A stretch of 64,000 bases of DNA, from positions 10,343,678-10,407,677 of the forward strand of contig NC_092579.1 of assembly GCF_037975245.1 (NCBI RefSeq). The letters run 5' to 3'. Shown here one piece after another: positions 35,371 through 64,000 of the stretch. The translations under genes and the position numbers were made by a program. This stretch comes from Apostichopus japonicus. Lineage: Eukaryota > Echinodermata > Holothuroidea > Aspidochirotida > Stichopodidae. How positions within the stretch are numbered: position 1 is the stretch's first letter; each line of letters starts with the position of its first letter. The notes below the pieces were generated by a model. That model made no database searches. It was not told where the DNA came from and worked only from the letters and a program-made list of their open reading frames with translations.

Positions 35371-35437
35371 GTTGGTTAGCATCATGTTTGATCTCTAGAG
35401 TAAGGCAAAATATGTCACCAAAAACAGAACTAGTATG

Positions 35438-35484
<47 letters not shown>

Positions 35485-35508
35485 AAATCAAGAACAGTGA
35501 AAAGCTTC

Positions 35509-35763
35509 CAGCCTCCACCGGGATTCGAGCCCGGGCCTTCCGCTCTGTACGCGGACACCCTAACCACTAGGCTATGGACGTTGATTGTATGTCCAGAGGT
35601 TCGAAACCGGTAAGGAAGGTCGCAATTCCACTGTAGGCGTTTGTCACCTGTATCGAACATACTAGTTCTGTTTTTAGTGACATATTTTGCCTTACTGTAG
35701 AGATCAAACATGATGCTAACCAACTCGAAATCATTTGTGAATCCTAAAGCCGGATCTCGAAAG

Positions 35764-35765
<2 letters not shown>
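35509..35765 (-). repeat. tRNA-like repeat unit, single inverted copy
   Basis: The minus strand carries a tRNA-like segment (35581-35509) with a box A-like stretch (TAGCCTAGTGGTTAGGGTG), an anticodon-arm stem TCCGC/GCGGA and a box B-like GGGCTCGAATCCC. It is preceded by the same 180-bp leader as the 38.8-39.8 kb array (CTAACCAACTCGAAAT in complement). Confidence 0.75.
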
Positions 35766-38656: not shown

Positions 38657-38943
38657 TATAGGGTGTCCGCATATAAAGCGGGAGGCCCTGGTTCGAATCC
38701 CGGTGGAGTGTGAAAGTTTTTACACTGTTCTTGATTTACAACTCATTTCTCATTACATCTCTTTCGAGATCCGGCTTTAGGAATCACAATTGATTTTCGA
38801 GTTGGTTAGCATCATGTTTGATCTCTAGAGTAGGGCAAATATGTCACCAAAAACAGAACTAGTATTGTTCGATACAGGTGACTAACGCCTACAGTGGAAT
38901 TACGACCTTCCTAGCCGGTTGCGAACCTCTGGACATACAATCA

Positions 38944-39016
38944 GCGTCCATAGCCTAGTGGTTAGAGTGTCTGCATATACAGCGGGAGGAACGGGTTCGA
39001 ATCCTGGTAGAGGCTG
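38944..39016 (+). ncRNA. tRNA-like sequence, unit 1 (not a functional tRNA gene)
   Basis: An acceptor-like arm GCGTCCA...AGAGGC, box A TAGCCTAGTGGTTAGAGTG, an anticodon arm around loop ATATACA, and box B GGGTTCGAATCC. The internal promoter boxes are intact, so Pol III transcription is conceivable. Confidence 0.5.
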
Positions 39017-39060
39017 GAAGATTTTTCACTGTTCTAGATTTTCTAACTCATTACGTTTTC

Positions 39061-39062
<2 letters not shown>

Positions 39063-39150
<88 letters not shown>
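39063..39150. repeat. (TA)n microsatellite
   Basis: An uninterrupted TA run of nearly 90 bp in the tail of tRNA-like unit 1. Confidence 0.95.
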
Positions 39151-39153
<3 letters not shown>

Positions 39154-39393
39154 CATTTGCCTTCGTCGTTTAACTCCATTTCATTCACATTAAGTCTGTT
39201 CAAAGTATCTCATTCGAGATCCGGCTTTAGGAATCACAAATAATTTCGAGTTAGTTAGCATCATGTTTGATCTCTAGAGTAGGGGCAAATATGTCACCGA
39301 AAACAGAACTAGTATTGTTCGATACAGGTGACTAACGCCTACAGTGGAATTACGACCTTCCTTATCGATTTCGAACCTCTGGACATACAATCA

Positions 39394-39466
39394 GCGTCCA
39401 TAGTCTAGTGGTTAGAGTGTCCGCATATACAGCGGGAGGCACGGGTTTGAACCCTAGTGGAGGCTG
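39394..39466 (+). ncRNA. tRNA-like sequence, unit 2
   Basis: Same structure: stem TCCGC, loop ATATACA, stem GCGGG, acceptor GCGTCCA with TGGAGGC (6 of 7 pairs). Box B has decayed (GGGTTTGAACCCT). Confidence 0.5.
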
Positions 39467-39764
39467 GAAGTTTTTTCACTGTTCTGGAGTTTCTACTCAT
39501 TACGTTTTCAATTATGTATATATTCATTTGCCTTCGTCGTTTAACTCCATTTCATTAACATTAAGTCTGTTCAAAGTATCTCATTTGAGATCCGGCTTTA
39601 GGAATCACAAATAATTTCGAGTTAGTTAGCATCATGTTTGATCTCTAGAGTAGGGCAAATATGTCACAAAAAACAGAACTAGTATTGTTCGACACAGGCG
39701 ACTAACGCCTACAGTGGAATTACGACCGTCTTTACCCGGTTTCGAACCTCTGGACATACAATCA

Positions 39765-39837
39765 GCGTCCAAAGCCTAATGGTTAGAGTGTCTGCATATA
39801 GAGTGGGAGGCACGGGTTCGAGTCCCGGTGGAGGCTG
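39765..39837 (+). ncRNA. tRNA-like sequence, unit 3
   Basis: Box A is altered (AAGCCTAATGGTTAGAGTG). Box B GGGTTCGAGTCCC is intact and the T-arm pairs CGGG with CCCG. Confidence 0.5.
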
Positions 39838-40009
39838 GAAGTTTTTTTTACCGTTAAAAAGATACAAAAAAGAAAAGTTGGAGTGATCGATAACACAAAA
39901 TGAATATAAAACAAATAAAGAAAGCCCCTCATCTATTATTATTTTTACGACGCTCAAGCAACCACAAATGTGAGAGAAGCCGCAAGGGTTTATGGGTTAC
40001 AACTTACAC

Positions 40010-42011: not shown

Positions 42012-43140
42012 TTAAACCGACGTCTTCGCGAAGTTTGCGTTAGGACGTTGGTTGGGGGAAATTATCAATAGCTTTGACCTTCGCCGGTAGTGGGTGGGTT
42101 CCTGTGGAATCAACTGTGTGTCCAAGAAATTCAAGTATAGGAACTCCAAACTGACTTTTACTTGGGTTAATGACAAATCGTAGTCTTGAAGTCGGTTAAA
42201 CAGTTGTCTCAAATGCTCCATATGTTCCCTTTTTGATTTACTAGCAATGAGTATATCATCGATGTTGACACAATTCCAGTCAACGAGTTACCTCATCCCT
42301 GAAGCGCTGGAATGTTTGAGACCAAATGGCATGCGTTTGAATTCGAACAGACCGAAATGTGTTGTTATTGGCGTTTTGCTAATGTCCAACTCCTCAACCG
42401 GGATTTGGTGATATGCGAGCACTAGGTCTATCTTTGAAAAAAAAAACGTTTGCGCCATTAAGTGACGCAGAAAAGTCTTTTAGATGCGGTATGGGAATGG
42501 TCACGTTATTTATTTCACGATAATCCCCATATGGTCTCCTTTCATCGTTATTCTTTCAAATCATGTGAAAGGGAATGCCCATCGGCTATCCGACGGGCGC
42601 ACTATGCCCAGCTGCATCATGTTTTTGAATTCTTGACGCACAGTTTTGAGTTTGCTGCGTGTTTGACAGCAGATTCTTCGAAATTGACACGAAAAAGGCT
42701 GGGGAATTCCGCAAGAAGCGCGCTGTAACCAGAGTCGCTTTGCGTAGTAGCGGAAGTTAGGCAAAGTGTTTTTAGCGGCGCGTTAGTTCCTTTGATGAAC
42801 AGATTTGTGGTTGTGTCAATAAGTTTGTTGTGCTTAACATCTACTTACAAGCCAAAATTGAGCACGATATCACAGCCTAAACTAAACAGTTTTTTAGTTT
42901 GCTATATACCAAAAATCTACGGGAATCGTGTCCTGAGACATTATGTCAAGCGCCAATGAACGTTGGCCAAACGTTGGAATTGTGCTGTTTACAGCTTGAA
43001 GCGTTGGTCCTTTGTCGCAATTTCGAAGATCTGTGCGCGCAGGAGATATAACACTGACTACCGCCCAGTTTCTATGAGAAAACGTGTGTTATTGATTCGA
43101 TCTCGCGCGTAAAACAGGCCACTTGTGACCTGACCAACGT
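42012..43140 (-). pseudogene. Gypsy protease-RT remnant, module 3
   Basis: A protease-region stretch at about 43130-42950 matches that of module 2. RT follows, with the catalytic loop reading VNIDDILIAS at about 42240-42270, where tyrosine of the usual YxDD is replaced by asparagine. The next frame (42221-42012) reads MEHLRQLFNRLQDYDLSLTQ. Many frame breaks. Confidence 0.75.
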
Positions 43141-43283
43141 TTGCCGCCACTATGCGTTAGCCTGAGCGTTTTCCGAATTATTAGACGTGCTAGAAAAATT
43201 GCACAGTGGTCTGGAGATTTTTGCAGCAGTGCAGCACATTTGATGATACCAACACATGCCTGGCGGGCCGTTTATCGCGTTTC

Positions 43284-43796
43284 CTACAGTTTGTTGATTA
43301 GTAGAAGTGTTACGCTATCGACCGCGATTCTAATTTCTTTAGGCGAATACTTATCAGAGTTCGTGCTCAATGTATAAGTAAGGGGTTTGTGGTCTGTGAA
43401 AATCGTGAATTGTCGTCCCTCTAATGTGGAGCGGAAATGTTTAAGCGTTAGATAAATGGCAAGCAGTTCGATTCCAAATGCACCGTATCTAGACTCAGTA
43501 CTACCTAGCTTTTGAGAGAAGAAAGACAACGGTTGCCAAGATCCATCTCGGTAGTGCTGAAGTACGCCTCCGACGGCCAGATCCGAGGCATCCACCATGA
43601 CGGAAAGTGGTAAATTGGGATCTGTATGTGTAAGTAGAGTAGCTTGCGCAGGCGCGGTTTTGCTAGCTGTAACAGCTTCAGAGGCTTCATCTGTCCAAGT
43701 CAAGGGTGCTGCATTTCGGTTGTTACCCGCAATTAAATCCGCGAGATGGCGAAGAAGTTCAGCACATTGCGGTATAAATAGGTGGTAAAAATTCAT
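43284..43796 (-). pseudogene. Gypsy RNase H remnant, module 2
   Basis: The longest RNase H copy: HTDPNLPLSVMVDASDLAVG, GSTESRYGAFGIELLAIYLT, LKHFRSTLEGRQFTIFTDHK, PLTYTL. It is open for about 140 residues before diverging. Confidence 0.88.
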
Positions 43797-44428
43797 TAAA
43801 CGGACGTCTTCGAAAAGTTAGCGTTAGGACGTTGGTTGAGGGAAATTATCAATAGCTTTGACCTTCGCCGGTAGTGGGTGGATTCCTGTGGAGTTTGAAT
43901 TCGAACAGACCGAAATGTGTTGTTATTGGCGTTTTGCTAATGTCCAACTCCTCAACCGGGATTTGGTGATATGCGAGCACTAGGTCTATCTTTGCAAAAA
44001 ACGTTTGCGCCATTAAGTGACACAGAAAAGTCTTTTAGATGCGGTATGGGAATGGTCACGTTATTTAATTCACGATAATCCCCATATGGTCTCCTTCCAT
44101 CGTTTTTCTTTCAAATCATGTGAAAGGGAATGCCCATCGGCTATCCGACGGGCGCACTATGCCCAGCTGCATCATGTTTTTGAATTCTTGACGCACAGTT
44201 TTGAGTTTGCTGCGTGTTTGACAGCAGATTCTTCGAAATTGACACGAAAAAGGCTGGGGAATTCCGCAAGAAGCGCGCTGTAACCAGAGTCGCTTTGCGT
44301 AGTAGCGTAGTAGCGGAAGTTAGGCAAAGTGTTTTTAGCGGCGCGTTAGTTCCTTTGATGAACAGATTTGTGGTTGTGTCAATAAGTTTGTTGTGCTTAA
44401 CATTTACTAACAAGCCAAAATTGAGCAC
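43797..44428 (-). pseudogene. Gypsy RT remnant, module 2
   Basis: A frame-broken RT region whose DNA is almost identical to 42340-42840 (for example GGAATGCCCATCGGCTATCC at both sites). About 220 bp is missing where module 3 has the catalytic loop, at the junction near 43892. Confidence 0.75.
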
Positions 44429-44505
44429 GATATCACAGCCTAAACTAACAGTTTTTTAGTTTGCTATACCAAAGATCTACGGGAATCGTCTCCTGAGACA
44501 TTATG

Positions 44506-44709
44506 TCAAGCGCCAATGAACGTTGGCCAAACGTTGGAATTGTGCTGTTTACAGCTTGAAGCGTTGGTCTTTTGTCGCAATTTTGGAGATCTGTGCGCGC
44601 AGGAGTCATAGCTGACTACCGCCCCAGTGTCTATGAGAAAACGTGTGTTATTGATTTGATCTCCTGCGTAAAACAGGCGACTTGTGTCCTGACCAACGTT
44701 TGCCGCCAC
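44506..44709 (-). pseudogene. Gypsy aspartic protease remnant, module 2
   Basis: RLFYAGDQINNTRFLIDTGA contains the DTGA active-site motif. It is followed by a frame that does not resemble protease. It lies downstream of an RNase H, which is out of normal order and reflects the tandem duplication. Confidence 0.75.
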
Positions 44710-44868
44710 TATGCGTTAGCCTGAGCGTTTTCCGAATTATTAGACGTGCTAGAAAAATTGCACAGTGGTCTGGAGATTTTTGCAGCAGTGCAGCACATTT
44801 GATGATACCGACACATGCCTGGCGGGTCGTTTATCGCGTTTCCTACAGTTTGTTGATTATTAGAAGAG

Positions 44869-45318
44869 TTACGCTATCGACCGCGATTCTAATGTATAAG
44901 TAAGGGGTTTGTGGTCTGTGAAAATCGTGAATTGTCGTCCCTCTAGTGTGTAGCGGAAATTTTTAAGCGTTGGATAAATGGCAAGCAGTTCGATTCCAAA
45001 TGCACCGTATCTAGACTCAGTACTACCTAGCTTTTTAGAGACGAAAGACAACGGTTGCCAAGATCCATCTCGGTAGTGCTGAAGTACGCCTCCGACGGCC
45101 AGATCCGAGGCATCCACCATGACGGAAAGTGGTAAATTGGGATCTGTATGTGTAAGTAGAGTAGCTTGCGCAGGCGCGGTTTTGCTAGCTGTAACAGCTT
45201 CAGAGGCTTCCTCTGTCCAAGTCAAGGGTGCTGCATTTCGGTTGTTACCCGCAATTAAATCCGCGAGATGGCGAAGAAGTTCAGCACATTTCGGTATAAA
45301 TAGTTGGTAAAAAATCAT
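44869..45318 (-). pseudogene. Gypsy RNase H remnant, module 1
   Basis: AELLRHLADLIAGNNRNAAP, LTWTEEASEAV, LSVMVDASDLAVGGVLQHYR, STESRYGAFGIELLAIY and FTIFTDHKPLTYTL. This is the Ty3/Gypsy RT-connection and RNase H pattern. It is nearly identical to the 43284-43796 copy. Confidence 0.88.
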
Positions 45319-45789
45319 TAAACCGACGCCTTCGCGAAGTTTGTGTTAGGTCGTTGGTTGAGGGAAATTATTAATAGCTTTGACCTTCGCCGGTAGTGGG
45401 TGGATTCCTGTGGAATCAACTGTGTGTCGAAGAAATTCAAATTCAATTCAAATTCAACTCGTAGTCTTGAATTCGGTTAAACAGTTGTCTCAAATGATCC
45501 ATATGTTCGCTGTTTGATTGACTAGCAATGAGTATACCATCGATGTTGACATAAAAAATTCCAGTCCAAGAGTTACCTCATCCATGAAGAGCTGGAATGT
45601 TTGCGCCTCATTTTTGAGACCGAATGGCATACGTTTGAATTCGAACAGGCCGAAATGTGTTGTTATTCCCGTTTTGCTAATATCCGACTCCTCAACCGGG
45701 AGTTGGCTAAAATTACGGAAGAATTCACAGCCTAAGATAGCAGTTTTTACGTTTGCTATATAACCCACCGGAATCGTCTCCTGAGACAT
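45318..45789 (-). pseudogene. Gypsy RT remnant, module 1
   Basis: A short protease-side piece (IPVGYIANVKTAILGCEFF) runs straight into RT (ISKTGITTHFGLFEFKRMPF, GLKNEAQTFQLFMDEV). The catalytic box region reads NIDGILIAS, so the second aspartate is lost. The part between protease and RT is deleted. Confidence 0.8.
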
Positions 45790-55520: not shown

Positions 55521-56408
55521 AAAAATAACTCGAAAAGTGAACTTTTGTTGATGTACAAACTTATCATGTAGATTGCCCTTGGTGAGAACCAAATCGCTGT
55601 GGAATTTCATACTAGTCAAATTTCCTTGAAGTCAAGAGAGGTAGTTTTCTGAAAACCCATTCTACGGTAACTTACATGGACATATACTGTCATCACATAC
55701 ATGTTTCTACACTACGATCATGATGCACAAATCTATATCATTTCATCTTCCGGAGCATGCATCCGTAAAAAAAAACTGTTGCAACGAAACCGGTGTACGC
55801 GCTGCATCCCACGTTGCTGAGTTCTCTAGCTCTCTCTGACCAGTGTATTTGTAGTAAGCACGAAGGTTTTAGTATGTCCAGTACGTTCCTACGAAAACCC
55901 GCGTGAACACGTTAGCCAGATTTTAGCGTTTCGGGGACGAACATTGATAAATTCATGCAAGCACAGTTGGCAGATCTGTTGAGCTAAGATCAAAGCTTTA
56001 ACAAGCGATACCCAAAGGAACTAATCAAGCAAGCCCAAAAGTACCAGTTTGCTCAGTTCTACTAGATATTGACGGGCGTGGATAATTGTTAACCTAAATA
56101 GTCAGAAATGGCCCCTCCTCCTCCACCCCCCCCCCCCGCTGCAAAACAAATTTATGCTGAGGTGACGGTCGGTGTGTATGTATGGGATTTTGGTTATTAA
56201 AGAATAAATAACATTCAGGGAGCTTGTACTTGGTAGCCTCGATGATCCAATCAATAAAAGAACCCTATTGTTTTTGGTGAAGGTCAAACCTCATTTGGGG
56301 TCAATACAGCCCAAACTGTGAATAACCTTCAAACATATGATACATCCAAAACTCTCAATTTGAAATCAAAGCCCTAACAAAATATCTCCTATGGGCAAGT
56401 AATCACTA
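55521..56408. other. No gene recognised
   Basis: Short ORFs only. A C homopolymer lies near 56126 and a GGTCAAACCTCATTTGGGGTC stretch at 56283 resembles the repeat theme to its left. Confidence 0.5.
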
Positions 56409-56590
56409 CACTCTAAAAACTGAAGTGCTAATTTAGTAGCACCAACACGGTGCTAGTCAACAATTAGCACTTTAAGAGCTAGTATCTAAACCTTCCAAGT
56501 GTTAAATAACTTGCACCATACCAAAGTGCTATCGCCGTAGTTGTGATGCACTGCACTTATTAAGTGCTGAAAGTTTCGTATTAACTTTTG

Positions 56591-56701
56591 ATTGGCTGAA
56601 GGCGTGACGTCAGTAACATGCAACAACGCTATTGGTTGTAACCAAATAGTTGCATATCGCATCGCTAGACGTGACAACTGACGAACGTTTCACCGGCAGA
56701 C
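56591..56701 (+). promoter_or_regulatory. Promoter-like cluster and probable untranslated first exon
   Basis: Two ATTGG boxes (56591-56595 and 56631-56635, CCAAT on the minus strand) flank a full CRE, TGACGTCA (56605-56612). About 65 bases later a perfect donor, CGGCAGAC|GTAAGT, ends a candidate exon at 56701. The arrangement suggests transcription rightward into the gene at 57.8-60.1 kb. Confidence 0.5.
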
Positions 56702-57840
56702 GTAAGTTTCTGAATTGAAATCTGTGAATATTCTCCAGAGTAAGGAATATTTGAAAGCTGATATGGCGACCTTTTATGAAATTTGAGTGATCATTCATGT
56801 TTTCAATAACCTAGCTTCGCTGATGACGTCGGGAATTCCCTTGAAATAATAGCTCTGTCGACGTCTTAGTGATGGTAGCCTACCACTGATTTCATAGGTC
56901 TATTCACGTATGTAGATGCCAAATGCGCTCTGATATAACATTAGGCTATGCCAAGTTTATGATTGGGCGTTTATAAATTATAGGCCTAGCCTACCTCCTT
57001 ATTGTAACATTTATAAGGCCTAACTTTATGGCCGCCAATGGTTATTCGATTGAGGTGTGCTACTGGTACTACCGTCTCCTATGTTTGCACAAGTGGCCAT
57101 CACAGAGTCTTAACGTATAAGAGAGGCAGGCTCAATGCAATAAGTATTGGTATTGGTTTATATGCCAATGCCTAAAGAATACGAGCCGATGGCCGCTAGA
57201 CGTCCACAAGAAAACGTTTTGGAAGGCCTGCCAACCCATATTACGCTTTGAATTTGTGGTAGCCTAGCCTAGGCCTAACAGTATTGTGGTAACAGGCCTA
57301 ACGTTGGTGTTGTTAATGTTACTTTGCAGTGTAAGGTCTGTGTGTGATTGCCGACTACAAAATGAAGTAGCCTACAAAGTACAAGTACAAACCATACTTC
57401 ACAGTCATACATTATTCAGGTTTAAAGAAAAATTAAAGTTAATGTAAACATAAAATAATGATCAGAGTAATCGTATACATCTTATTCTTATTTGACCTTC
57501 ATAGTGTTTCCCTTATTTCGTGCATCGCTTAATTTTGTGTACCCTAATGTTTGCCTTGTTTGCACCTATCAAGGAAGGCCTACTATAAGTATGTTTTTCT
57601 TTTGAAATGATGACTCCCAATGTAAATATGCTTCATTTAAGATGTTCTGTCATAAAAAGTGAAAGACTATAGGTAGGCTAAATTTGCCAATTAATTTGAA
57701 ACAAATTTCGGTGAAAATTTAAACATGCTTTTTTTTGATCGAATCTGTTTATAGACTCAAGCTTTTGCAGAAAAATGAAAGAAACCTGACATGTTTTGGG
57801 ATTCATTGCATGTTTTCTTGTTCTATTCTTGTACTTGTAG

Positions 57841-57989
57841 ATTTTGCAAGACTTTGAGCAGATGTATGGAGATCAGGTCGCCAATAACTTTTTGATGAAA
57901 TGGGGGGAACATTCCCGTTTCCAACAGTAGTACCAACTCAGCTCTGCGGGACCTTCAGTTTGAATTTGAAGAAACAGAAAAGTCTGAGG
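57841..57989 (+). CDS. Transposon cargo gene, exon a
   Basis: Acceptor TTCTTGTACTTGTAG and donor TGAGG|GTATGT. The first part (through MKW) is in one frame. After the six-G run the frame with STNSALRDLQFEFEETEKSE continues and exits in phase 1. Confidence 0.6.
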
Positions 57990-60114
57990 GTATGTTTCAA
58001 AGAAGTGCTAACATTTTGTAGTCATGTGACTCTCATTGTGCAAGTGCAGTCAAGTTTTCTGTAGTGAATATTTGGTATGTTAGCTCTATGAAAGACTGCT
58101 ATAGGTAAAATCATGTACAGAAAAGTGGCAATGCTGTTAACAGTTTGTATATGGTACCCAACTTTCTTTAAATATACATGGAAGATATGAATGAAAGTGA
58201 TTAAACTGAAACTGAATTACATTCCAATCTAGATTTTGAAGAAGACTTAAGTTCTGACACCATCGAAGCTGGTGGGAGCTTATGTCATTGGTGGGCATCT
58301 ACTGTACCTGTCTATCAGTCTAACGATAGTTCATTTAGTGGTATTATCTCCAGCAGTCTTCTTTTGATTTTCAAGTACTGAAGCTAACTTGGCTAAGCAG
58401 ATCCATGGGAGGGGACCCATCACCAATGTATACAAAACTTGATGTCAAAGATCATTTAGGTGTCAATTCAGGCTGCAGCGTGTGAATCTAAAATAGCCAG
58501 ATCATTATCAGATTGCTCGCAAATTGTTGAAATCAGTGGATTTAAACTTGTATCCAGATTTCAAATCAAAGATTATAACTATTGGGGCTAAATTTGTAGC
58601 CAGTTCTTAGGCCCATGCACTAAAATTGACTAAGCTGGCAATCCTGTTCACTATTGCTTTAATTCCAGCTGTGGAGTGAGGGTCAACTGAAGGAAATTTG
58701 TTTCTTGAGCCACGTACTGTTAAAGCGCTGTGGGTGGAGGGGTGTGTTATTATTCTAGAAACATTGTAGAACCAATGTTGTAGGTCTGGTGGTGTAGGGT
58801 TGTAACTGTATAGCCACTTGCTTGGTTCCTTCATTGATACAAGTTACTGTACCACTTGATGCCCTAGTTTCCTCCATCCAAGAGTGTATTCAATAAGCAA
58901 AAGTATTAATTTCCTGGCCAAACCAATTTCAATTATAGAGTAGTGTCCCAGAAATTCTTTCTTGTTTTATTTTGGCATGCAGTGCCTATGTGTAATTTGT
59001 ATATTGCAATTTCTAGAGCAAATAGTAGGAACGAACAATTACTAACTGACACGTCACACTATTTTGTTGACATATGCATCTGTTTTGTTGAGATATGTAA
59101 TCTGTTTTTGTGTTTTTCATTATTAAGAAACTTTTTATTTTCTTCTTTAGAACATGCATCCATGTACAGTCTGTTTGCATTGGTTCACCTATTGCTGTCT
59201 TTCAACACAAGGAAAAGTGGAAAATGCAGTCGAGATGACAATATCCGTTACTTCATCGTCTGGCAACCAGTAAGTTGTTTTGTGTGTTGAGTGGGAAAGA
59301 TCTGCCAAAATTCATACAGAGTGATCAATCTTTAACCATTTGAGCCTAGTGGGATATTGGTGCTGACATACTGTCCTCTAGACCTCAGCCCCCTTGGCTC
59401 AATCTGCTCTGGGCAGTCCAGATAGGTGCCCTTATTAAATGTGTCTTTCCTTCAGGAGATAAGAGTCAACCACATAAAACTATCTGATAAAGATGTGGGT
59501 CAATGTAGACTATTCTGTACCTGAGCCAGATAATCCTTCATTATATATCAAGTTACATCTGCATATCTTTTTAGCTGGTTAGATATTAATATGGATTTTA
59601 TATTTGGTTAAAATATGGCACGAGCCAGGCAGCAGTTCAGGCAAGATAAATAATAGTACGGTTAGTGATGCAAGCAGGATGTGAACTGATTGTCACCTGG
59701 ACTAGTTGAATTTTTCAGAGATTACTAGAGAAATTGGCACTATTTTGGAAATTAATGCATGCTTAATTTATTTTCTTCTTAGATCGGAACAAATGTGGAA
59801 GAATATGCAAAGAAAAGCCAACTCAGCAGAAAACAGCCACACCTCCTGGCCATTGGAAGCAATGTGACTGACTTGCAGCATTTTTTGTAGTTCTGGATGG
59901 AGTTGCCCTACCTGTTTCCAGGCAAGCATGTGGAATTGTAGCAGCTACAGATATTGTAATGAAAGTTCATTATGTTTTTAATGTAGCATATGCAGTGCAG
60001 CTCACAGATTTCTACACCTTTATCCAAACTGTGTTGTATGGCATACCTCCATCAGGTCAAAAGATAAGTAATCGTGTTAAGGAGATAAGGATTGCTTTGC
60101 AAAATGTGGAGTAG
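57841..60114 (+). CDS. Uncharacterised transposon-associated gene, four exons recognised, two frame breaks
   Basis: Exons at 57841-57989, 58233-58271, 59151-59269 and 59783-60114 join in one frame (phases 1, 1, 0). Readable pieces are ILQDFEQMYGDQVANNFLMK, NSALRDLQFEFEETEKSE, DFEEDLSSDTIEA, ASMYSLFALVHLLLSFNTRK, YFIVWQPIGTNVEEY, QPHLLAIGSNVTD, FVVLDGVALPVS, FNVAYAVQLTDFYTFIQTVL and YGIPPSGQKISNRVKEIRIA. This order (FGD-FLxKW, LLLLxHLL, QPxLLAxG, aFyVF-Y...FLQ..vYGI) resembles a large uncharacterised, SAMD3-like family seen in fish and invertebrates. That link is from memory and has no known function. Frame breaks fall in a six-G run (57901-57906) and a six-T run near 59890. N-terminal exons were not found. 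Confidence 0.6.
58233..58271 (+). CDS. Transposon cargo gene, exon b
   Basis: A 39-nt exon with acceptor CCAATCTAG and donor AGCTG|GTGGGA, phase 1 on both sides. It encodes DFEEDLSSDTIEA. The phase fits both neighbours exactly. Confidence 0.5.
59151..59269 (+). CDS. Transposon cargo gene, exon c
   Basis: Acceptor ATTTTCTTCTTTAG and donor CAACCA|GTAAGT; 119 nt, phase 1 in and phase 0 out. It encodes HASMYSLFALVHLLLSFNTR and DDNIRYFIVWQP. Confidence 0.7.
59783..60114 (+). CDS. Transposon cargo gene, exon d (C-terminal)
   Basis: Acceptor TTTATTTTCTTCTTAG. It encodes IGTNVEEYAKKSQLSRKQPH and LLAIGSNVTDLQHF, hits a stop at the T run, and continues in the next frame with VVLDGVALPVSRQACGIVAA to a stop at 60112-60114. 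Confidence 0.68.
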
Positions 60115-61131
60115 TTGCAAGCATGTCTTAAAATGTATTCTTTTTAATTACTACCATTAATCTCTTCAAGATTTCTCTTAACGTTTCTTAAGTTGCAATG
60201 GCCATTTTGAAGTAGAAAAACATGCCGTATGTTTTTACTTTGGGATCAGTGTTTCAATTCTAGTAATCCTTTAGAGCTCAGTATGTACCTATTATCTAAA
60301 GTGTAGTTGGATTTTTGACATGAACAGAATTATAAGGCCTACAAAACAGGGTAAACAAATACAAAACTGACCACTACACAACTCAGACCCACATATATCT
60401 CTAAAATCATCTCCAGATGAACCTGGTTGTGATGGATAAATCAAGTTTTGACCAGTTATTCAGGTTGTACAGTTGATGATTTAAGTTTGGGCTTATAAAC
60501 ATGGGAGGGATACTGCTTGCACCAGATCTCAGCCACTCACACAAATTACTCATTAATAATTAACGACTCACAATTTGTCAAGTACTTGCTCACCCTTTGG
60601 TAGCGTAGGTTTGCCTAACCTAGTCTTGATTGGGTGTTGTCACTGTTACATTTGCCTTTTATCATGTTTTAAAACATTCATTCCGACTGTTAGATGTTAT
60701 TCAGTGTTATGTTTCAGTTTATTTTTGACTTCATGGAAAGAGTGGAGTGAATAGGTTTGAAGATGTTTTCCAAAATAAGGAACCATGGGAACAAAGCCTC
60801 ATTGGGTGGTCAAAACTGTTTTTGTTTTTTTAATTTAATTTTTGTCCAATCTGAGATCCTATCCAGTTGGAATCTGGATTTTACTGGATTTTAGGGGTGC
60901 ATAGTCCCATCTCCTGTCAATATCACTCAGTACTAATACAGTAAATTAATATCATGTTTGAACATTGTAACATCCATGGCTAAATGTAAACATAAAGTTA
61001 GGCTAGAACACTATGCATGGATATACTCTAGCACTTCTGGTCTACAGCCTTAATTTTTTATAGTAACCAAAGGGCTTAGGTGAGATACTTAAGCTAATCT
61101 GTCTACATTATATGGTTATGAGTTTAGATAT
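60115..61131. other. 3' flank of the cargo gene within the element, nothing coding recognised
   Basis: AT-rich sequence with no exon and no clear poly(A) signal close to the stop. Confidence 0.5.
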
Positions 61132-61371
61132 CTTAAAGGTTGTATTGGCCCCAAATATGCTAGATTTTAAAATATGGTCACATTTGGTCAAAATTCTTAA
61201 ACTTTTCTTATTAACACCCTGGAGGAAATTTACCTCTCTGGAACATTTCAGTTATCCTGAGTGCTCATGTAGAATGTCAATTTGGAAAGTAAAGATCTCC
61301 AGGAAAGTAGTTTTTGAAAACTTCTATTAAGTTTAGCATGCAATTTGGGGCCAATACAGACTACCTTTAAG
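61132..61371. mobile_element. 240-bp nested inverted-repeat element
   Basis: The left end is CTTAAAGGTTGTATTGGCCCC. The right end is GGGGCCAATACAGACTACCTTTAAG, which is the complement apart from a 4-base insertion. No transposase. Confidence 0.8.
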
Positions 61372-62484
61372 TGAAAAGTTGGATAAGTGATATATCTTTG
61401 AATCACTGAATTTGCTTCATAATTATGTTACTATTAAGCTGGTGGTTATATCTGAGATCCGCAACAAAATATTAAAGGTTTTACTATAACTTAACTATAA
61501 AACTTGCATCTTTCCTTTTACTCCAAACAAGTGCAGAGTCTAAAAGGGAGGGAGGGGGGGGGGGTGTTCAATTCATTTTCTTATATGATAATTGCAAATG
61601 CAGTACAGGTTCAAGTGCAAGTATTGAAGTAGAGTGAGAATTGACAGCATTATTAATCAGCTGATAGAAAAGTCTTTTTGAATGATTTTACTATTTGATT
61701 GTGATAACATACAGCTATTCATCTTTCTTAAGAACCATGGCAAAAATATTGATATGTTTATGTTGGTTACAAAGACCTAAATATTTCTTTACTGCAAACT
61801 ATCATGGGTCAATGCTTGTTGATGATGCTAACCAGTGTAAATCAACATAAATTATCAGTTTTAATGTTTCCTATCTTTTGAATTTCCTAATTATGCTCTA
61901 GTGTTTGTGTTTTGTAATATAAAAAACAAGAGAATCTGAGAGAAATGTGGCATCATAAAATCACAGCTGAAAAAACAACACATGCAAACATGATATTGCT
62001 TGCTTTGATAGAGATTCATCTATGGGACCCAATTTTTCTGAGCTGTTGTGTGATATCTTACAAACTATTAGGTACATTCATACTTCCTTGTAAATGAATT
62101 AGAAGGCCAAAATGTGATGCAAAATTCATGGTTTACTCATTTTTAATTAAGTCAGTGGTTCAAAACAAATGTTAGGGTAAAAATATATAAGAAAATCAGA
62201 AATTTTTGTTAACGATCTGAAATCTCATCACTTCATTCTCACTTTGTGTTTGATATTTTTCTTTGTTTCATGAAATAAAAAAGTAAATCTTATAAGTTTC
62301 TCTGTTTTCCTTTATTCTTGTTGATTTAGTATGCCCAAAATGTGTCAAAAAAGTGAGGAATGTCTTGAAGAATGGTATCCTCAGCTTCCATCAATTTGTT
62401 GTTTGACATCAAAGAAGACACTTGTTTATGGGGTTGTGGGCTATTTGAAGCAATGGCGAAGATCCTCTGAATATAATAGTTTAA
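61372..62484. other. Interior of the CACTA-like element, nothing firm
   Basis: A candidate exon after GTTGATTTAG at 62330 stays open (MPKMCQKSEECLEEWYPQLP) for about 55 codons. It has no recognised domain and no tested splice partner. A G homopolymer is at about 61552-61563. Confidence 0.35.
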
Positions 62485-62696
62485 GCACTTTAAAGTGTTG
62501 GGTATAGCTCTTAGCGGGTGCAGAAACCAGCACCTTATTGGGTGCAGAAACTAGCACTTTATGAGGTGCTGGGAGAGATAGCACTTTGTCAGTGCTGTGT
62601 TTAGCACTTGGGGTGCTGTCCCTAATAGGGCTCTTACAAAGTGCTATGAAATAGGTCTTTAAGTGCTGAAATCAGCACTTTAGTTTTTAGAGTGTA

Positions 62697-64000
62697 ACTC
62701 TTTGACTTTCTGGTTTCTTATTTGCTCAATACTAGGCTGCTCATGCCCTTATGTAAATGATGTATTCATCCTTTAAGAAAAATACCCCAGCAGCACGGCT
62801 AATAAATCAGCAGTGATGTTAGATGTTTGTATAGCTAACTACCGGACCAAAGTTCAGGAGGCTGTTTCGAAATATAACAATAACAGAGAAAAATCTGCGG
62901 AAGGAGGGAGTGCTCCCGCATCCACTCTCAACCCCAATGAACCAGAAGTGTTGCATTTCTTTACGTGCGATTATGAAGTACTTAATTAACCCGGTTTTGG
63001 GCTTAAAATCAAAATTAATGAAGTTGACAAAACCTAGTCATTGACATTATACCGAATACCAAATTATTCCAATATCACAAAAGCAAACACACAAATTCAG
63101 AAAAGTAAACTTTTTCTGTTACATTTCCTGCATGAATATAAAAATAGGGTTTCTATTACATAACGGCATGAACGGTAGAGTAATATACGCCCCTCCCCCT
63201 TTGTTGGCCTGTGGGGATGACGACGAAGTGTAGATCTACCAGACCAGGTTCACTGTATCCCTTTGTCCTCCTGTATAATCCCCGGAATATGATGCACACT
63301 TTGATCAATGGATCTTATCAGGGTCACCCATATCTCACGCGCACAAAATAATTATATTAATTCTTTCGATTGTGTTGTTGATGCCTACTTGTCACCATTT
63401 CAACTGACCAGTACTGCAGATATGTGCCAGAGTGAGAGAAAAGGAATCCTTTAAACTCAGACTTCTGGAAAAGTTTTGAAAAAAGTGTTAGTAAAAAAAA
63501 GTTAAATGAGACATAATAGTAACTTTTAGGTACATAAAATACAGTAAGGCAATATTGAGACCCTGTGACAAATTAGTGCCATTTCATGACACACGTACTT
63601 TCTATATAAGCCTTCACCTGATCAGCTATGTATACACAATAATGCACATGTTTTGTAGCCTATATAGTCCAATACGCTTAATGTTTTCTCAAAGGTATTC
63701 GGTAAGAGCGGGGGAGGAGGTGGGGGGGGGGGGTGGCAGGCTTTGAAGGGGGAGGGGTTTCCGATCATTTAATTTTATGGCTTAGTGGGTCACTAGTTCC
63801 CAAACATATTCGAGACGGAAGCTCATACAACTTCCGGTTTAGAATTAAAAAAGGGTTTAAGTGCTCAAGTGGCAATGTTTTCAAACTGATCACCCTTCCT
63901 AGAGAGAGTGTCATGTTTATTGTGTTTACAATAAACGTGGAACCTCACACATATCCATTGTACATTGAATATCATGTGATATCCTTACACTTGCAAAGTA
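62697..64000. other. Right-edge sequence, no gene recognised
   Basis: Short ORFs only. It has a purine-rich stretch with a long G run at 63708-63763. CTTCCTAGAGAGAGTG and AATAAACGTGGAAC near the end suggest nothing specific. Confidence 0.5.

What the first reader, a model, noticed from the sequence alone, without database searches (positions are those of the whole stretch)
56409..62694. A 6.3-kb CACTA-like element that carries a spliced, uncharacterised gene instead of a visible transposase
Seen: inverted ends starting CACTCTAAAAAC at 56409 and 62694, TA on both flanks, dense AGTGCT/AGCACT words just inside both ends, and a plus-strand gene with four phase-consistent exons between them. Known: CACT ends with subterminal repeats characterise En/Spm (CACTA) transposons. 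Inferred: the gene is cargo, or it is the mobility protein of an undescribed family whose proteins are widespread in fish and invertebrates as 'uncharacterised' or SAMD3-like. If other members of that protein family also sit inside such ends, the protein may be part of the transposition machinery.
Basis: partly seen in the sequence, partly recalled or inferred. Interest (0 to 1): 0.82.

Follow-up and report, generated by a model that had tools for sequence, protein, structure and literature searches.

The report
Gutted sea-cucumber CACTA-type jumping gene
This is most likely a broken, transposase-less copy of a CACTA-type DNA transposon in a sea-cucumber genome, still holding the tail of a second gene that working copies probably carry next to their transposase, so it is a useful lead but not a new kind of element.

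Summary
The two ends are real and belong together. A 28-nt inverted pair (26 of 28 matching) starts TA-CACTCTAAAAAC at 56407 and 62696. Seventeen GTGCT/AGCAC words crowd the outer 160-211 bp. Between them I found only the C-terminal three exons of one protein family, two of them frame-broken. The first 326-330 residues of that family, and a transposase, were not found here.

Named relatives are all from the sea cucumber Apostichopus japonicus; the rest are unnamed contigs. One unnamed relative matches the element's intron as well as its exon, so another copy of the interior, or a diverged allele, exists. One A. japonicus gene model fuses the same protein behind a piece that looks like the end of a CACTA transposase; its Pfam support is below threshold.

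Best reading: a degenerate internal-deletion derivative of an animal CMC-EnSpm (CACTA) element whose autonomous form probably encodes a transposase plus this second protein. Ends of almost the same sequence, and a two-protein layout, are in print for zebrafish.

The genome-wide search for other end pairs and empty sites did not complete in 22 attempts, so mobility, copy number and the protein's role stay inferred.

The parts
56407..56408 (.). left copy of the presumed 2-bp target-site duplication, TA
56409..56434 (+). left terminal inverted repeat, CACTCTAAAAACTGAAGTGCTAATTT
56423..56570 (.). left subterminal zone: 6 GTGCT words in both orientations, consensus near AAGTGCT(A/G) over all 17
56585..56703 (+). 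promoter-like stretch: the only TGACGTCA of the element at 56605, ATTGG at 56591 and 56631 (ATTGG is common, 15 in the element), a possible first splice donor GTAAGT at 56702
   Evidence: motif positions; the role is inference
57841..57989 (+). exon 1 of the surviving gene piece (matches P0004 327-366 and P0005 331-356); in-frame TAG, frame broken (149 nt)
58937..59150 (+). end of intron 1, matched by unnamed relative P0003 in translation: 3 of the first 12 residues, then 55 of 59
59151..59269 (+). exon 2, open, 39 whole codons; HLLLSF where all six relatives compared have HLLPSF
59783..60114 (+). exon 3 with stop TAG at 60112; one frameshift near a T6 run at 59881
60115..62470 (.). long stretch with no recognised coding part; no Pfam family passed its cut-off in the open stretches scanned
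62482..62680 (.). right subterminal zone: 11 GTGCT words in both orientations
62669..62694 (-). right terminal inverted repeat
62695..62696 (.). right copy of the presumed target-site duplication, TA

Best explanation
A non-autonomous, degenerate internal-deletion copy of an animal CMC-EnSpm (CACTA) cut-and-paste transposon. Shown: one matched pair of ends, TA on both flanks, GTGCT-rich subterminal zones, the broken C-terminal third of one gene, no detected transposase, and another copy (or a diverged allele) of part of the interior. Inferred: the intact element carries, on one strand, a DDE transposase followed by a second gene of about 530 residues. The transposase cuts at the CACT ends and inserts at TA. 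The second protein helps gather the two ends, for instance by binding the GTGCT words, much as TNPA does in maize Spm. In this copy a deletion removed the transposase and the first 326-330 residues of the second protein. What remains decayed, so it could move only if an intact relative supplied the proteins.
For: Ends and subterminal words far above shuffles. Only residues 327-526 of P0004 and 331-537 of P0005 find a match in the element, although P0004 and P0005 are 59% identical over their full length. Frameshifts and a TAG. P0003 matches the translated intron in 55 of 59 residues after a poor first 12 (3 of 12), and exon 2 in 34 of 39. P0006, one A. japonicus gene model, joins 257 N-terminal residues to the same protein (97% identical to P0005 over 382 residues). 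A 98-residue slice of them has DUF4218 (PF13960) as its best Pfam model (E 0.13); I had named that family before the scan (note). In print: zebrafish CMC-EnSpm with TIR CACTCAAAAAAAT and two proteins (PMC11202377, passages); 2-bp direct repeats at 7 of 14 SmTRC1 copies (PMC1636069, passages); CA..TG ends in most cases and 2-5 bp duplications across the CMCT clade (PMC12730594, passages).
Against: No second locus with these ends was seen: the genome search did not complete. The transposase-like piece gets no Pfam hit within the whole of P0006 or as a 261-aa piece. The slice hit lies below its cut-off of 27 bits; an unrelated family (VMAP-M5) scores almost the same (E 0.15); I chose the slice with DUF4218 in mind; and 3 of 10 shuffled or reversed controls hit some other family at E 0.07-0.16. 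P0006 could be a faulty fusion of two neighbours that are not one element: the model P0005, nearly identical over 382 residues, starts with its own first exon and lacks the piece. The DNA around the relatives was not seen.
Confidence: 0.67

Rival explanations
1. A Pack-type non-autonomous CACTA element that captured the 3' part, introns included, of an ordinary host gene. The gene is cargo and has no part in transposition.
For: The remnant starts in mid-gene and keeps its introns. Gene capture by plant CACTA elements is known (recalled). The family's role is untested, and its link to a transposase rests on one gene model.
Against: The family occurs as diverged paralogues in A. japonicus (P0005, P0007, P0002), and one follows a transposase-like piece in a gene model. 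Two-protein CMC-EnSpm elements are in print (PMC11202377).
Confidence: 0.2
2. Two unrelated short CACTA-type MITEs that happen to flank a decayed gene fragment.
For: No second copy with the same interior and both ends has been seen.
Against: The ends face each other, match at 26 of 28 positions, share the same subterminal words and TA flanks, and no further exact CACTCTAAAAAC lies in the 64 kb; a degenerate second end of a MITE could be missed.
Confidence: 0.06
3. An element of another TA-inserting group (for example ESTA, PHISTA or Tc1/mariner-like) with CACT-like ends.
For: TA duplications occur in several groups; ESTA and PHISTA are described as TA inserters (PMC12730594, passages).
Against: CACT ends with dense subterminal words are the CACTA pattern (recalled). 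Animal CACTA elements have 2-bp repeats (PMC1636069), and the zebrafish CMC-EnSpm end is almost the same (PMC11202377).
Confidence: 0.07

Closest known systems
Zebrafish CMC-EnSpm element with TIR CACTCAAAAAAAT (PMC11202377; passages read)
   Same: Almost the same end sequence; large element; two proteins are said to be associated with these elements.
   Different: That element is full with both proteins; in this one no transposase and only the end of a second protein were found. The passages do not say what the second protein is.
SmTRC1 and other animal TRC elements of the CACTA superfamily (PMC1636069; passages read)
   Same: Animal CACTA lineage with 2-bp flanking repeats; SmTRC1 has alternatively spliced products.
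   Different: TIR starts CCC (54 bp in SmTRC1) and a Transposase_21 ORF is present.
Maize En/Spm with TNPA and TNPD, and its dSpm deletion derivatives (two proteins: PMC1636069; 3-bp duplication: PMC4158355; the rest recalled)
   Same: CACT ends, dense short subterminal words in both orientations, two element proteins, internal-deletion derivatives.
   Different: 3-bp duplications in plants; different subterminal motif; no sequence link between TNPA and this protein was tested.

Membership tests
CMC-EnSpm (CACTA) superfamily | Terminal inverted repeats beginning CACT (CA..TG) | tested here: met
CMC-EnSpm (CACTA) superfamily | Dense short subterminal repeats in both orientations at both ends | tested here: met
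CMC-EnSpm (CACTA) superfamily | Target-site duplication of 2-3 bp | tested here: inconclusive
   TA on both flanks; one site only, no empty site seen; 2-bp repeats in animal members per PMC1636069
CMC-EnSpm (CACTA) superfamily | DDE transposase with C(2)C and H(3-4)H motifs in the element or in its autonomous parent | tested here: inconclusive
   None found in this copy (30 of 107 open stretches scanned; tblastn). A relative's gene model has a DUF4218-like piece with H-x3-H and a following E, below threshold and nearly tied with an unrelated family
CMC-EnSpm (CACTA) superfamily | Repeated in the genome, with empty sites | not tested
   The genome search did not complete (22 attempts; first, last). 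Only protein-level evidence of another interior copy or allele
SAMD3-like proteins | SAM domain | tested here: inconclusive
No SAM hit in P0001, P0002, P0004-P0009 or in the window pieces; P0003 not scanned.
PB1-domain proteins | PB1 domain at the N terminus | tested here: inconclusive
   Hits below cut-off in P0005 (27-77, E 0.039, its best row) and P0008 (27-80, E 0.18, third behind FliH and YceD). P0009, with the same domain, gave no PB1 row (its best row is Aa-Ago_N, E 0.006, also below cut-off). In P0004 the PB1 row lies elsewhere. Low-confidence model

The most novel reading that the evidence does not exclude
The protein family of P0004-P0009 is a hitherto unnamed second transposition protein of animal CACTA elements: an animal counterpart of TNPA, perhaps with a PB1-like N-terminal domain that can assemble protein chains, which gathers the two ends by binding their GTGCT arrays. 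Orphan 'uncharacterized' genes of this family in echinoderms, and perhaps fish, would then be transposon genes.
Probability: 0.32. Interest if true: 0.62.

Novelty: new member of a known kind. Interest (0 to 1): 0.42.

Why it matters
If the linkage holds, a set of 'uncharacterized' animal genes can be relabelled as transposon genes. CACTA elements of animals and plants would then share a two-protein plan: a transposase and a separate protein that gathers the ends. The end sequence and the GTGCT word give direct handles for finding intact copies.

Tried and rejected
Rejected: an intact four-exon gene (three exons supported, two of them frame-broken). A DDE domain in this copy: Pfam scans of 30 of 107 open stretches gave no transposase; the other 77, mostly shorter, were not scanned as such. 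[quoted passage not shown]

Paper searches: none for 'CACTA transposon' with SAMD3, EnSpm with sterile alpha motif and transposase, Apostichopus japonicus with CMC-EnSpm, sea cucumber with CMC-EnSpm. One zebrafish transcriptome paper holds 'SAMD3-like' (listing only). Only PMC11202377 holds one of the end sequences searched as text. Searches were listings (15 of 15, 4 of 4, 10 of 161 and 15 of 93 papers shown) used to choose papers. PMC12730594 was read as passages. PMC4298943, PMC2884549 and PMC4158355 were read only as passages, for background.

Full report
OBSERVATION. The 6.3-kb stretch 56409-62694 is bounded by one inverted pair. With the flanking TA the arms are 28 nt and 93% complementary, 26 of 28 positions. 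The best such pair in 30 dinucleotide shuffles of the window reached 23 (12-base exact seed, 1-15 kb apart). The window also has an unrelated perfect 28-mer pair at 35582 and 39737, in repeats that carry tRNA-like matches. The core word CACTCTAAAAAC is found exactly twice in 64 kb, at these ends; with up to 2 mismatches it is no commoner than chance (8 against 9.3 expected). Just inside the ends, GTGCT or AGCAC occurs 6 times on the left and 11 times on the right. GTGC/GCAC density is 52 and 58 per kb there, against 3.4 per kb in the interior. The most crowded 225 bp holds 11 words, against 4 in the window without 56001-63000 and at most 5 in 100 shuffles. The aligned words give a consensus near AAGTGCT(A/G), in both orientations. 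The flanks show TA on both sides; a 3-bp duplication does not fit.

THE GENE. In the window pieces no Pfam family passed its cut-off. Protein searches gave nine relatives: three, one and six, of which one was already known. The four named ones (P0002, P0005, P0006, P0007) are from the sea cucumber Apostichopus japonicus; the other five are from unnamed 'lgn' contigs. That the window itself comes from a sea cucumber is inferred from this. Full-length members are P0004 (526 aa) and P0005 (541 aa), 59% identical over their whole length. Against the element, only P0004 327-526 and P0005 331-537 match, in pieces that fall into three exons. These have splice signals: exon 57841-57989 (acceptor TAG, donor GTATGT), exon 59151-59269 (acceptor TTAG, donor GTAAGT), exon 59783-60114 (acceptor TTAG, stop TAG). 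The A. japonicus model P0002 runs through both joints.

THE GENE IS BROKEN. Exon 1 is 149 nt where the joint needs 3n+1, and its starting frame meets a TAG. Exon 3 is 332 nt where 3n is needed; the frame changes near a T6 run at 59881. P0001, another copy or allele, is open across that place, so an assembly error in a homopolymer cannot be excluded there. In exon 2 this copy has HLLLSF where all six relatives compared have HLLPSF.

OTHER COPIES. P0003, from an unnamed 1,872-base contig, matches not only exon 2 (34 of 39 residues) but also the translated intron before it: 55 of 59 residues after the first 12, of which only 3 match. An intron is not expected to be conserved between unrelated genes, so this is another copy of the interior or a diverged allele. 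The exon is no better conserved than the intron, as expected of a copy without protein constraint; the numbers are small.

LINK TO A TRANSPOSASE. P0006 (A. japonicus hypothetical protein BSL78_23814, 669 aa) carries 257 N-terminal residues that P0005 lacks; after them it is 97% identical to P0005 over 382 residues. From memory I recognised the 257 residues as the end of an animal EnSpm transposase, and noted the likeness to DUF4218 before testing. The whole protein and a 261-residue piece gave no Pfam hit. A 98-residue slice gave DUF4218, the domain recalled to follow Transposase_21 in plant CACTA transposases, as its best model: E 0.13, 12.6 bits, cut-off 27, residues 8-74 against model 2-68. 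An unrelated family, VMAP-M5, came second at E 0.15. Three of ten shuffled or reversed controls hit some family at E 0.07-0.16, none of them DUF4218. The score alone therefore proves nothing; the weight lies in the predicted family coming first. The slice also shows H-x3-H followed by an E in WCMRFEAKH, compatible with the C(2)C, H(3-4)H, E pattern described for the group (PMC12730594, passages). The order transposase, then P0005-type gene, on one strand is inferred from this single gene model. P0005, nearly identical over the shared part, begins with its own first exon and lacks the piece, so P0006 may be a fusion of two neighbouring genes: expected if both lie in one element, but no proof of it.

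LITERATURE. Animal CACTA (TRC) elements have 2-bp direct repeats (7 of 14 SmTRC1 copies; PMC1636069, passages). [quoted passage not shown] That makes the present ends an ordinary member of a known kind. What the second protein of animal CMC-EnSpm elements is was not stated in the passages I read. Searches listed under Tried and rejected found no paper that ties this protein family to CACTA elements; that covers only the open-access library searched.

MECHANISM. Shown: matched ends, subterminal words, TA flanks, a C-terminal gene remnant with broken frames, no detected transposase, another interior copy or allele. Inferred: cut-and-paste movement by a transposase supplied elsewhere; the second protein gathers the ends; an internal deletion removed the transposase and the N-terminal exons while keeping a promoter-like 5' region. 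Not known: copy number, empty sites, activity. The genome search that would settle these was unanswered 22 times (first, last).

PROTEIN ARCHITECTURE. P0005 and P0008 have weak PB1 rows near residues 27-80; in P0008 two other families score better, and P0009, with the same domain, has no PB1 row (for P0009 Aa-Ago_N leads, E 0.006, below cut-off). The poor model shows strand-strand-helix-strand-strand-helix there, the order expected of PB1 (recalled). Everything else about the fold is unresolved.

VERDICT. A degenerate animal CACTA element is the best account (0.67), gene capture the main rival (0.20). On rechecking I lowered the first from 0.70, raised the second from 0.17 and lowered the novel case from 0.35 to 0.32, because the near-tied second family and the better-scoring rivals of PB1 had been left out.

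Noticed in passing
window 35434-35764 and 38757-39847: Repeated units, 79-93% identical and in both orientations, with two tRNA-family matches (35510-35581 minus, 39765-39836 plus); possibly a tRNA-derived SINE array..
   Followed up: no
window 42335-45414: A 1.5-kb tandem duplication, 94% identical; a chance tblastn row inside it (FTDHKPLTYTL) looks like the RNase H end of a retrotransposon (recalled motif)..
   Followed up: no
window 61132-61162 and 61334-61371: An imperfect inverted pair inside the element, with a perfect 16-bp core at 61141-61156 and 61343-61358..
   Followed up: no
window 62325-62507: A 60-codon open stretch ending inside the right subterminal zone, preceded by an AG; only a Pfam row below cut-off.
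   Followed up: partly
P0008 and P0009 (unnamed contigs): Short proteins holding only the N-terminal domain and then diverging, as if transcripts ran into the next intron or the domain is also made alone..
   Followed up: no
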